Origin: Gordonia sp. PP30
Lineage (GTDB): Bacteria > Actinomycetota > Actinomycetes > Mycobacteriales > Mycobacteriaceae
Assembly (NCBI RefSeq): GCF_023100845.1
Contig: NZ_CP095864.1
Span: 62,001 to 126,000 of the forward strand
Direction: 5' to 3'
DNA length: 64,000 nucleotides
Of the stretch, positions 49,217 to 52,860 are shown one piece after another. Within the stretch, counting starts at the first letter, position 1, and each line of letters opens with the position of its first letter. The position numbers were made by a program, and so were the translations under genes. The notes below the pieces were generated by a model, which saw only the letters and a list, made by a program, of their open reading frames with translations, had not been told where the DNA came from and made no database searches.

Positions 49217-50296
49217 GTGACCGAGCGCATCTCGGCCGAACAGTGGAACCGGACCCTGCTGGTGCGTCAGCACCTGGTGGAGCGGGTCGCGGAGGAACCC
49301 ATCGAGGTGATCGACCGCTGCGTGGGAGTGCAGTCGCAGGATCCGCGGGCGGCGTTCTTCGCGCTCTGGTCCCGCATCGACGGCTTCGACCCCGCGGAGC
49401 TCGACGCGCTCCTGACCGACCGCGAGGTGGTCCGGATGGCGCTGCAGCGCGGCACCGTGTTCCTGATGGACGGCCTCGACGCCCGATGGATCCGCGGGGC
49501 GGTGCAGCCCGCGCTGGAGGCGTCGCTCACGAGCAATCATCTGCGCAAGCTCGGCGACGTGGACCCCGCGGCCGTCGTCGAGGCGGCCCGGCGGCTGTTC
49601 GACGACGACGGCGGCGAGCACGGGATCTCGGCCGCGCGGCTGCGCACGGAACTGACCGGGCGGTGGCCGCAGGCGCCGGCGGATTCGCTGACGTCCGTCG
49701 CGCGCGCCCGGTTGCCGCTGGTGCAGATTCCACCGCGTGGACTGTGGGGCCGCAGCGGCGCGCCGTCGTACGTGCTCCTCGACCACTGGATCGGGCCGGG
49801 TGAGCCCGCGCTGATCGGCGACGAGGCGCGCAAGGACCTGATCCGCATGTACCTGCGCGGCCACGGGCCGGCGTCGGCCGCCGCGGTGGCCGCCTGGAGT
49901 GGGCTGTCGGGTCTGCGTCCGTTGCTCGACGCGATGGAGGCCGACTGGGAGCTGGTGAAGCTCGCCGGACCGGACGGCCGGGAGCTGTACGACCTGGACG
50001 GTCTGGCGATCGCCGAGGGCGATCAGCCGGTGCCGGTGCGTCTGCTCGCGCCGTACGACGGGGTACTGGTGGCCAACGCCGACCGTGACCGCGTCGCCGA
50101 TCGGGACGTGTACGCGCGGACGGTGACGGCCAACGGGCGCTCGCCGGGGTTCGTGCTCGTCGACGGCCGGCTCGCCGGGACCTGGCGACTGGGCTCGGGA
50201 AGCGTCGAGCTGACGGAACTGGTCGACCTGCACCCCGCTCAGCGCGCCGAGGTGGAGCGCGAAGCCGCACTGCTGGCGGAGTTCGCGGCGGGGTGA
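49217..50296 (+). CDS. Winged-helix DNA-binding domain protein (HTH_42/YcaQ-like)
   Basis: This 359-residue protein has the family pattern: LLVRQHLVERV, VGVQSQDPRAAFFALWSRI and MALQRGTVFLMDGLDARWI, with several winged-helix modules. The YcaQ/AlkZ relatives include DNA glycosylases that unhook crosslinks and alkylated bases. Whether this protein has the catalytic residues I cannot say. It starts with GTG at 49217, five bases after msrA, so the two are likely co-transcribed. The stop is at 50296, immediately before the DnaA-box region. Confidence 0.78.
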   Translation: MTERISAEQWNRTLLVRQHLVERVAEEPIEVIDRCVGVQSQDPRAAFFALWSRIDGFDPAELDALLTDREVVRMALQRGTVFLMDGLDARWIRGAVQPALEASLTSNHLRKLGDVDPAAVVEAARRLFDDDGGEHGISAARLRTELTGRWPQAPADSLTSVARARLPLVQIPPRGLWGRSGAPSYVLLDHWIGPGEPALIGDEARKDLIRMYLRGHGPASAAAVAAWSGLSGLRPLLDAMEADWELVKLAGPDGRELYDLDGLAIAEGDQPVPVRLLAPYDGVLVANADRDRVADRDVYARTVTANGRSPGFVLVDGRLAGTWRLGSGSVELTELVDLHPAQRAEVEREAALLAEFAAG

Positions 50297-50396: not shown

Positions 50397-50627
50397 TTGT
50401 CCACACGTTGTCCACAGGCCGGGGTGTGGGACGCCCGGGTGGCCGTCGGCAAACCCGGAGGTGACGCACAGGCATCCGGGAGTCTCAAATCGCCCGAAAA
50501 TGTGAGGTCCGCGTCACATTTTGATTGTCGACCTCGCTGTTGTCCACAAATCCACAGGGTTATGCACAGCGCGACGGGTGGCATGTGGACCATGTGGACA
50601 ACCCGGCCGAATCCGCCCTGTGGATAA
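50397..50627. other. Cluster of DnaA-box sequences, origin-like or DnaA-titration site
   Basis: The 445-bp gap between the winged-helix gene and the rhodanese gene contains five exact or near-exact DnaA boxes in both orientations. TTGTCCACA occurs at 50397-50405, 50408-50416 and 50540-50548. The complement TGTGGACAA is at 50593-50601 and TGTGGATAA (exact TTATCCACA on the other strand) at 50619-50627. Weaker variants are TTATGCACA at 50560-50568 and TGTGGACCA at 50584-50592. A locally AT-richer stretch follows (50622-50650). No dnaA, dnaN or parAB gene is in the window. It may bind DnaA to modulate initiation or be a displaced origin. Confidence 0.75.
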
Positions 50628-50741
50628 CTATTGGGACGAATTCGATGAACCGTCGCAACCGGATCACGCCGCGATGTGGTAGGGATTCCGCGCCCGTCTT
50701 CGACCGGCAAGCCCGGTGCCTCCGGGGCGATCTGTGGGAAC

Positions 50742-51089
50742 ATGGTCGACGTGAGCATGGACATCGAACAGATCGACGTCGCCGACCTCCCGGACGACTT
50801 CACCGATGTCACCGATCGCACGCTGCTGGACGTCCGCGAGGGCTACGAGTGGGAGTCCGGGCACGTGCGCGGTGCACTGCACATCCCGCTGGACGACGTC
50901 CCGGGGCGGTTCGACGAGATCGACCTCGACGCCGACCTGCTAGTGGTCTGCCGCACCAGCGGGCGCAGCTTCCGGCTGGCGCAGTATCTGGCCATGCGGG
51001 GCATCGACGCGACCGTCGTGCACGGCGGCATGGTCGCCTGGGAAGCCGCGGGCAAGCCCGTGGAGACGGGCCCGGAGCAGTCGGCGTGA
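50742..51089 (+). CDS. Rhodanese-like domain protein
   Basis: This single-domain rhodanese of 115 residues has the signature LLDVREGYEWESGHVRGALH and an active-site loop with Cys (VVCRTSGRSFRLA). The Cys is present, so sulfur transfer is possible. Starts at GTG 50751 and ATG 50757 are also possible; ATG 50742 gives the longest plausible version without entering the DnaA-box region. Its stop overlaps the start of the zinc-ribbon protein gene (TGATG), so the two are translationally coupled. Confidence 0.88.
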   Translation: MVDVSMDIEQIDVADLPDDFTDVTDRTLLDVREGYEWESGHVRGALHIPLDDVPGRFDEIDLDADLLVVCRTSGRSFRLAQYLAMRGIDATVVHGGMVAWEAAGKPVETGPEQSA

Positions 51090-52081
51090 TGCTCGACGTC
51101 TGCCTGTCGTGCCGGATCCAGGCCGAACACCAGCCGGGCCGCGCCACCTGCCCGCGGTGCGGCCGGCCGCTCACCGTGCTCGATGAGACCACTCGCCGGC
51201 CGGTCGCCGGCGGCCCGGCTCCGGCCCCCGCCGCGGCGGCGGCTCCCACTCCGGCCGTCCGCCGCACACCGACTCGGCCCGCGCCGCCGCGGTTGCGCTG
51301 GGTGGCGCATCGCCCCGCCGACACGCTCCCGCCGCGGCCGTCCCCGGCACCACGGCGACGCACCGTTCCGGCACGCTACGGCCAGATCCCGCGCTGGGGT
51401 CTGTTCGACGTCGTCGCGCCGCCCGCCGAGGAGGCGGGCACCGATCCGGCCGCGTCGCTGCGCCGCTGGCTGACGTTCCTGTGGCCGTTCCTGGTGGCGG
51501 CCGCGGTGATGCAGCTCCTGCGGTACGTGACGCTGATGGTCAACCGCTCGCGCCCCATCCCCGCGTGGTGGGATCTGGGCACGCTGGCCCTGGTGATGCT
51601 GTGCGGCTGGGTGGCCGCGGCGGGCGTCGTGGTCGGGCTCTACTACTTCACGCGCTGGATGATCCAGGTGCGTGCGGACTCGTATGCGCTGGCCGGGCGG
51701 AGCGATCCACGACCGGCATGGGCCGTGCTGCTGATGACCGCGCTGATCTTCGTCAACGTCGTGGGTGCGCCGTTCGCGCTGGTCGAAGCGGCGCGTGCGG
51801 CCGGTGGTCCGGGCGTCGCCCGGGTGGAGCGGGCCGTCCGGCGGGTGGCCGTGGCGTGGGGGCTGGTCAACCTGATCGGCGCGATCGCGCTCGCCTACCG
51901 CATCGCCTGCCTGTTCACCGACAGCGTGCAGACCGGCGCCGACGCGATGGCCTGGGCGACCCTCGCCTTCGCGGCCTCCGCGGTGTTCGCCCGGTGGCTC
52001 GGTCCGCGCCTGGACAAGGTGGTGGTGACCGGCGACGAGGTCGCCTCGGCCCCGCCGCGACGATTGGTGGTGGCGGCATGA
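51089..52081 (+). CDS. Zinc-ribbon membrane protein with DUF4328
   Basis: This 330-residue protein begins with a zinc ribbon (CLSCRIQAEHQPGRATCPRC, with Cys pairs at 5/8 and 20/23). An Ala/Pro/Arg-rich linker follows (about 30-110), and then a membrane region of four to six segments (about 145-310) with YYFTRWMIQVRADSYALAG, which fits DUF4328. Function is unknown. It overlaps the rhodanese stop and the start of the phosphodiesterase gene (ATGA), giving a three-gene coupled operon. Confidence 0.78.
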   Translation: MLDVCLSCRIQAEHQPGRATCPRCGRPLTVLDETTRRPVAGGPAPAPAAAAAPTPAVRRTPTRPAPPRLRWVAHRPADTLPPRPSPAPRRRTVPARYGQIPRWGLFDVVAPPAEEAGTDPAASLRRWLTFLWPFLVAAAVMQLLRYVTLMVNRSRPIPAWWDLGTLALVMLCGWVAAAGVVVGLYYFTRWMIQVRADSYALAGRSDPRPAWAVLLMTALIFVNVVGAPFALVEAARAAGGPGVARVERAVRRVAVAWGLVNLIGAIALAYRIACLFTDSVQTGADAMAWATLAFAASAVFARWLGPRLDKVVVTGDEVASAPPRRLVVAA

Positions 52082-52860
52082 ACTCGGACGTGTCCCGCTC
52101 GGGGAAGCCGGCGGTCGTCGCCCACCGGGGTGCGTCGGCCGACCATCCCGAGCACACGCTCGCCGCCTACGAGGCCGCGCTGTCCGAGGGTGCGGACGGC
52201 CTGGAATGCGATGTCCGGCTGACGGCCGATCATCAGCTGGTGTGCGTGCACGACCGCACCATCGATCGCACCTCCGACGGCGTCGGCGTGGTCAGCGAGA
52301 TGACGCTCGCGCAGTTGCGCCAGTACGACTTCGGGTCGTGGAAGGGCGGTAAGCCCGCGTCGGTGCTGACCCTGCCGGAACTGCTGGAACTGACGCTCGA
52401 CTGGCGGCGCCCGGTGCGGCTCTTCATCGAGACCAAGCATCCGGTGCGCTTCGGCAGCCTGGTGGAACAGCGGTTGCTGGAGACCCTGCACGAGTTCCGG
52501 GTCGGTGCGCCGCCGTCCGCCGATCACAGCCGGGCCGTGGTGATCTCGTTCTCGGCGTCGGGGATCTGGCGGGTGCGCCGCGCCGCGCCGATGCTCCCCA
52601 CCATCCTGCTGGGCGAGACCCTGCGCGGCATCAGCGCCGGTGCCGCGACCGCGGTGGGCGCCACCGGCGTCGGACCGTCCGTGCAGACCCTGCGCAGCCA
52701 TCCGGAGCTGGTGGATCGGGCCGCGGCGAGCGGCCGCGTCACCTACGCGTGGACCGTCGACGAGCGCAGCGACGTGCAGTTGTGCGCCGACCTCGGGGTG
52801 CGCTGGATCGCCACCAACCACCCGGCGCAGGTGCGCGACTGGCTGGTCACCGTCGACTGA
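52078..52860 (+). CDS. glpQ: Glycerophosphodiester phosphodiesterase
   Basis: This 260-residue enzyme releases glycerol-3-phosphate from glycerophosphodiesters. It has the catalytic His and metal ligands in VVAHRGASADHPEHTLAAY, EGADGLECDVRLT and LVCVHDRTIDRTS, and the closing TYAWTVDERSDVQLCADLGV motif. No signal peptide is present, so it acts in the cytoplasm on lipid-turnover products. Its position next to a DUF5926 protein, an LCP protein and sodA recalls the M. tuberculosis glpQ1 region. The ATG at 52078 is coupled to the upstream gene. Confidence 0.93.
   Translation: MNSDVSRSGKPAVVAHRGASADHPEHTLAAYEAALSEGADGLECDVRLTADHQLVCVHDRTIDRTSDGVGVVSEMTLAQLRQYDFGSWKGGKPASVLTLPELLELTLDWRRPVRLFIETKHPVRFGSLVEQRLLETLHEFRVGAPPSADHSRAVVISFSASGIWRVRRAAPMLPTILLGETLRGISAGAATAVGATGVGPSVQTLRSHPELVDRAAASGRVTYAWTVDERSDVQLCADLGVRWIATNHPAQVRDWLVTVD

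What the first reader, a model, noticed from the sequence alone, without database searches (positions are those of the whole stretch)
50397..50627. DnaA-box cluster without dnaA or dnaN
Five strong DnaA boxes in both orientations lie within 231 bp of a noncoding gap: TTGTCCACA three times, TGTGGACAA once and TGTGGATAA once, plus two weaker variants. One or two such 9-mers are expected by chance over tens of kilobases, not five in one gap. The flanking genes (winged-helix protein, rhodanese) are not replication genes. The locus could be a DnaA-titration site like datA, a DnaA-reactivating site like DARS, or a second or displaced origin. If the synteny with the origin-proximal arm of M. tuberculosis holds, it sits about 100 kb from the normal oriC, a position from which titration would track early replication.
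Basis: partly seen in the sequence, partly recalled or inferred. Interest (0 to 1): 0.8.

Follow-up and report, generated by a model that had tools for sequence, protein, structure and literature searches.

The report
Conserved DnaA-binding locus away from oriC
A 231-base non-coding stretch 112 kb from dnaA holds the densest group of exact DnaA boxes in this bacterial genome, shares a three-box core with many relatives, appears to be the counterpart of a site that DnaA was shown to bind in mycobacteria, and likely helps to time chromosome copying by holding DnaA.

Summary
It is not an origin: GC skew turns near dnaA. The boxes are conserved: 43 of 43 same-genus loci in which the rhodanese gene was reached (of 59 genomes) have an exact box upstream of it. 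A core of three co-oriented boxes recurs in 157 of 251 family genomes, 22 of 31 genera, almost always once, with no hit in the reversed-pattern control. By gene order it is probably the counterpart of the Rv3843c-RVnc0040 site, bound by DnaA of M. tuberculosis in vitro, its homolog by M. smegmatis DnaA in ChIP-seq (PMC7738170); its authors saw no obvious correspondence in other species. In the window's genus the core is inverted relative to the genes (37 of 37; 0 of 36 elsewhere). Best reading: an origin-proximal DnaA-holding element that works like datA or a DnaA-box cluster, with its own geometry. It lacks the head-to-head DARS arrangement. Function is untested; control of the neighbouring genes is the main rival.

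The parts
50397..50405 (+). DnaA box TTGTCCACA (outer tandem pair, first)
   Evidence: majority-base fraction 0.90 in 15 aligned genus members, window included
50408..50416 (+). DnaA box TTGTCCACA (outer tandem pair, second, 11 bp from the first)
   Evidence: majority-base fraction 0.93
50540..50568 (+). Triple-box core: TTGTCCACA (50540), weak AAATCCACA (50548), TTATGCACA (50560); only match to the core pattern in this genome
   Evidence: majority-base fraction 0.91
50584..50592 (-). one-mismatch box TGGTCCACA
50593..50601 (-). DnaA box TTGTCCACA, facing the core; poorly conserved
   Evidence: majority-base fraction 0.57
50619..50627 (-). DnaA box TTATCCACA facing the core; conserved opposed box (+76 from the core's first TCCACA)
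   Evidence: majority-base fraction 0.90
50501..50518 (.). inverted repeat TGTGAGGTCCGCGTCACA between the outer pair and the core; role unknown
49217..50296 (+). AlkZ-like winged-helix gene, upstream neighbour
   Evidence: PF06224; found in 59 of 59 genus genomes
50742..51089 (+). rhodanese-domain gene, first gene downstream
   Evidence: PF00581
51089..52081 (+). DUF4328-like membrane protein gene, probable Rv3843c counterpart
   Evidence: PF14219 at 24.6 bits, below its cut-off of 27.2; relatives beside GDPD in 30 of 30 fetched loci
52078..52860 (+). glycerophosphodiester phosphodiesterase gene (glpQ1-like)
   Evidence: PF03009

Best explanation
This is a conserved, usually single-copy cluster of DnaA boxes close to the origin but outside it, which probably binds DnaA as its mycobacterial counterpart does and likely restrains re-initiation by holding DnaA in an ordered complex soon after the fork copies it. 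Shown here: the boxes, their clustering, their conservation, the triple core, the opposed outer box, the position 91-322 kb from dnaA on either arm in the 20 genomes computed, and the inversion relative to the genes in this genus. Shown by others: DnaA binding at the site that gene order identifies as the probable counterpart. Inferred: that DnaA binds here too, that three co-oriented boxes plus outer boxes at roughly whole-turn steps seat a defined DnaA oligomer, and that its early duplication draws DnaA away from oriC.
For: Clustering beyond chance. Boxes anchored to the rhodanese even where more than 1 kb separates it from the winged-helix gene: 43 of 43 loci with at least one exact box, 37 of 43 with at least two. 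Box columns 0.86 vs spacer columns 0.57 majority base (15 of 43 loci aligned). In 60 of 76 named mycobacterial-type loci (of 80; 4 dropped for too little upstream DNA) at least one exact box lies in a 1.5 kb stretch upstream of the GDPD gene, against 1 exact box in the other 573 kb. Triple pattern in 37 of 59 genus genomes and 157 of 251 family genomes, nearly always single, 0 in the reversed-pattern control; of 30 loci fetched from the family scan 27 lie beside the rhodanese and 3 in the dnaA-dnaN gap. Many outer boxes fall in narrow distance classes about 11 bp apart. DnaA bound Rv3843c-RVnc0040 in vitro (M. tuberculosis) and the homologous region in vivo (M. smegmatis) (PMC7738170 passages). 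The window genome's DnaA domain IV aligns over 96 residues with PDB 3pvp, deposited as DnaA (that 3pvp is the M. tuberculosis domain is recalled). The core is inverted relative to the genes in this genus, 37 of 37, against 0 of 36 elsewhere, which suits an orientation-free DnaA holder better than a fixed promoter part.
Against: No binding or deletion data exist for this genome, and the passages seen of the 2020 paper report no functional test of this site. 94 of 251 family genomes lack the strict pattern, including all listed g4 and all but three g3 genomes, and those three have it in the dnaA-dnaN gap. Outside the box core the gap is poorly conserved: DNA similarity over 481 bases is found in only 12 of 59 genus genomes, the window's own included. 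No exact same-strand outer box lies within 250 bp upstream of any of the 75 mycobacterial core matches, so only the core and the opposed box are widely shared. Several outer boxes do not fit the 11-bp steps. Origin-proximal position is common for conserved gene blocks and is weak evidence by itself. Six boxes are few for pure titration. A TGTGGRA motif lies just before the rhodanese start in 15 of 15 aligned genus members, which could mean local gene control.
Confidence: 0.6

Rival explanations
1. DnaA acts here as a transcription factor: the boxes are operators for the rhodanese-DUF4328-GDPD genes, or for a small RNA such as MTS2975 of M. tuberculosis.
For: The cluster or core lies upstream of that gene set in the family loci examined, apart from the three g3 loci. 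A small RNA, MTS2975, lies between Rv3843c and Rv3844 and was seen on Northern blots (PMC3207917 passages). A TGTGGRA motif sits just before the rhodanese start in 15 of 15 aligned genus members.
Against: The core is inverted relative to the genes in one whole genus. Its distance to the aligned start of the DUF4328 protein ranges from 58 to 859 bp in 36 genomes, partly because a rhodanese gene is present in some and not matched in others. No Rfam match in 1,201 bases around the gap.
Confidence: 0.25
2. A DARS-like element that reactivates ADP-DnaA.
For: A core of three boxes in a non-coding gap, as in DARS1 and DARS2 (PMC4585315 passages).
Against: In the E. coli K-12 bioD-uvrB and rppH-mutH gaps (recalled as DARS1 and DARS2; the three boxes picked by me from a two-mismatch list) one box faces two co-oriented boxes at 14 and 12 bp, and the head-to-head pair is called a prominent feature (PMC5742627 passages); here all three are co-oriented at 8-9 and 12 bp.
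Confidence: 0.08
3. A second or displaced chromosome origin.
For: Exact-box density exceeds that of the dnaA-dnaN gap.
Against: In the 400 kb around dnaA cumulative GC skew has its minimum 15.5 kb from dnaA and rises through 100-140 kb; dnaA, dnaN and weaker boxes lie together at C1:1-3289.
Confidence: 0.02
4. Chance clustering of a short motif.
For: Short motifs do cluster at times; one-mismatch sites are not in clear excess over the window.
Against: and conservation.
Confidence: 0.01

Closest known systems
DnaA-bound site Rv3843c-RVnc0040 of M. tuberculosis and its M. smegmatis homolog (PMC7738170)
   Same: Probably the same gene surroundings (membrane protein next to a glpQ1-like GDPD; Rv numbers of the neighbours partly recalled); the three-box core sits upstream of that gene pair in mycobacterial loci
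   Different: Core inverted relative to the genes here; extra outer tandem pair here; no binding data here
datA of E. coli
   Same: Non-coding DnaA-box cluster outside oriC
   Different: datA depends on boxes 2 and 3 and an IHF site (PMC4585315 passages); no IHF site was sought here
DARS1 and DARS2 of E. coli
   Same: Three-box core
   Different: Head-to-head pair in DARS, co-oriented boxes here
DnaA-box clusters of B. subtilis and the Streptomyces coelicolor cluster
   Same: Chromosomal box clusters reported to repress untimely initiation (as cited in PMC5742627; originals not read)
   Different: No shared sequence or gene context was tested; in B. subtilis the effect was strong only when six clusters were removed (PMC5295017 passages)

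Membership tests
Rv3843c-RVnc0040 type DnaA site | Upstream of the Rv3843c-like and glpQ1-like gene pair | tested here: met
   naming of the Rv3842c and Rv3843c neighbours is partly recalled, M. tuberculosis DNA itself was not retrieved
Rv3843c-RVnc0040 type DnaA site | Shared three-box core | tested here: met
   Looser triple pattern in 74 of 80 named loci and in the window; M. tuberculosis and M. smegmatis are not among the 80
Rv3843c-RVnc0040 type DnaA site | DnaA binding in vivo | not testable with these tools
   Published for M. smegmatis, not for this genus
datA | DnaA boxes with an IHF site; hydrolysis of DnaA-bound ATP | not tested
   No IHF-site search was made; activity needs biochemistry
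datA | Box cluster outside oriC in a non-coding gap | tested here: met
DARS | Three-box core with head-to-head boxes I and II | tested here: not met
oriC | GC-skew change and dnaA/dnaN adjacency | tested here: not met
   dnaA-dnaN at C1:1-3289
Initiator-titrating DnaA-box cluster | Deletion causes early or extra initiation | not testable with these tools
   needs an experiment

The most novel reading that the evidence does not exclude
A family-wide, usually single-copy DnaA-control locus of the Mycobacterium-Gordonia group: the actinobacterial answer to datA, with its own code of three co-oriented boxes at 8-9 and 12 bp plus outer boxes stepped by whole helical turns, which was inverted within its gap in one genus without being lost.
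Probability: 0.45. Interest if true: 0.82.

Novelty: new variant of a known kind. Interest (0 to 1): 0.62.

Why it matters
How these bacteria restrain DnaA between initiations is, to my knowledge, little understood. The 2020 study listed this site as bound but with no obvious correspondence in other bacterial species. A defined, conserved core makes the question directly testable in a non-pathogenic relative.

Tried and rejected
A second origin was rejected by skew. An Rfam RNA around the gap was sought and not found. Paired GTCACA repeats (an MtrA-type layout) were sought and not found in the window. A DARS core was rejected on box arrangement. The triple pattern was followed outside the family: in the order scan 80 of 298 genomes match, 44 of 55 in the family and 36 of 243 outside it; 20 of the outside loci, the number fetched, showed no relative of the flanking genes, dnaA or dnaN, so they are not counted as the same locus. 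Three of these were read further as ORF lists. Rows dropped before counts: 16 of 59 genus genomes, because the rhodanese was not inside the fetched stretch (7 of them have the core); 4 of 80 named loci; the three dnaA-dnaN loci in the distance counts; in the orientation count outside the genus, genomes whose pattern place was not listed or lay on another contig than the DUF gene (G143), leaving 36. One search's list of places was cut. The alignment used 15 of 43 loci, chosen by me. Relatedness of the genomes is not corrected for in any count.

Full report
WHAT IS THERE. The window is C1:62001-126000 of a single-contig 4,480,774-base genome with dnaA at C1:1-1482. At window 50397-50627 lie six exact TTRTSCACA boxes, four on + and two on -. 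They are 6 of 50 in the chromosome; the next densest group has 3. The dnaA-dnaN gap has one exact site and several one-mismatch variants. In 20,000 random placements no 231-base stretch held more than 3. Sites with one mismatch to TTGTCCACA are not clearly in excess over the window as a whole (10 against a mean of 5.5; 6 of 100 shuffles reach 10).

NOT AN ORIGIN. Over 400 kb around dnaA the cumulative GC skew has its minimum 15.5 kb from dnaA and rises through 100-140 kb.

CONSERVATION IN THE GENUS. The winged-helix gene is found in 59 of 59 genomes. In 43 of 59 genomes the rhodanese lies inside the fetched stretch; 43 of these 43 have an exact box in the 500 bases upstream, 37 of 43 two or more, and 43 of 43 three or more within one mismatch, overlapping sites on the two strands counted apart. 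In most loci more than 1 kb separates the winged-helix gene from the rhodanese, yet the boxes stay by the rhodanese. As plain DNA the gap is poorly conserved: 12 of 59 genomes, the window's own included, match a 481-base query. In 15 aligned loci (of 43) box columns average 0.86 majority base and spacer columns 0.57; the box at 50593 is the exception at 0.57.

THE TRIPLE CORE. A pattern of three TCCACA-type boxes occurs once in each of 37 of 59 genus genomes and in none of the reversed-pattern controls; all 37 places lie within 5 kb of the winged-helix gene. In the family it occurs in 157 of 251 genomes and 22 of 31 genera, twice in G073 and G262 and otherwise once, with no control hit. Of 30 loci fetched from that scan 27 lie beside the rhodanese (26 with the DUF gene also matched; in the other, the contig ends) and 3, all in g3, lie in the dnaA-dnaN gap. 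Of 80 named loci, 79 titled with a mycobacterial genus or family name and one only as Actinomycetota, 74 hold the triple by a slightly looser pattern, 75 matches, each on the strand opposite to the genes; of the other six, three are too short, one duplicates another and two lack it. Many outer boxes fall at narrow distances: an opposed box at +73 to +77 or +85 to +89, and, outside mycobacteria, a same-strand box at -133 to -136, -143 to -147 or -155 to -159. Exceptions are +50, -122, an opposite-strand box at -117/-118 in six genus loci, and boxes at -178, -103, -44, +81, +99, +136, +153 to +157 and +163. The steps of about 11 bp suggest helical phasing; this is inference and the loci are related.

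INVERSION. In the window's genus the core lies on the same strand as the genes in 37 of 37 genomes; in 36 of 36 other family genomes compared it lies on the opposite strand (with strands taken).

POSITION. dnaA was placed in 28 genomes. In the 20 of these with a listed core match the core is 91-322 kb from dnaA, on the right arm in 12 and on the left in 8; some of the assemblies are not closed and contigs were treated as circles. Such proximity is usual for conserved blocks near the origin and is weak evidence by itself.

LINK TO KNOWN BINDING. DnaA of M. tuberculosis pulled down five regions, among them Rv3843c-RVnc0040, and ChIP-seq in M. smegmatis found the homologs of the same five (PMC7738170, passages seen). 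[quoted passage not shown] Mycobacterial loci fetched here carry boxes and the triple upstream of the GDPD gene; in g29, one locus of which has a BfrB-like gene beyond the GDPD, the DUF gene lies between. That Rv3842c is glpQ1 and Rv3841 bfrB is recalled, and M. tuberculosis DNA was not retrieved. In this genome the other four published regions also seem to have boxes: the dnaA-dnaN gap and upstream of dnaA, the junction of crgA and a PH-domain gene (one exact and two one-mismatch boxes), and a three-site group just upstream of a frame that reads as dnaB, with rplI beyond. Matching these to Rv numbers is recalled.

HOW IT LIKELY WORKS. DnaA probably fills the core and the facing outer boxes and is held there once the fork has doubled the site, which would lower the DnaA free for oriC. 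The E. coli DARS cores read here have one box facing two, so a DARS role by that arrangement is unlikely. Control of the neighbouring genes or of the small RNA MTS2975 (PMC3207917 passages) is the main rival.

WHAT IS NEW. Searches of the open-licence paper library listed no paper that I recognised as describing this conserved core; most were judged by listing only, and subscription journals are mostly not held. Passages were seen of eight papers; none was read whole.

Noticed in passing
G000:C1, dnaB-like frame starting near 4397400 (minus): The frame that reads as dnaB is 762 aa long between stops and carries what looks like an intein insert; no family search was run on it.
   Followed up: no
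relatives of window 50619-50660 (alignment): A palindrome like CTATGCAGGTCTGCATAG, in varying form, follows the opposed box in most aligned genus members but is missing in the window and its three nearest relatives.
   Followed up: no
L253-L271 (family f16 genomes): A triple with 9 and 13 bp spacing, one per genome, occurs in another family; in the three loci read it lies near a YajQ-like gene (gene name recalled).
   Followed up: partly
L223-L225 (genus g3): In three g3 genomes the triple-like pattern lies in the dnaA-dnaN gap instead.
   Followed up: partly
G000:C1:387120-387159: Two exact boxes lie close to the start of a gene with a weak, sub-cut-off MinD/ParA-type domain match.
   Followed up: partly
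window 50501-50518: TGTGAGGTCCGCGTCACA inverted repeat inside the cluster, the only such match in the window; 9 of 100 shuffles have one.
   Followed up: no
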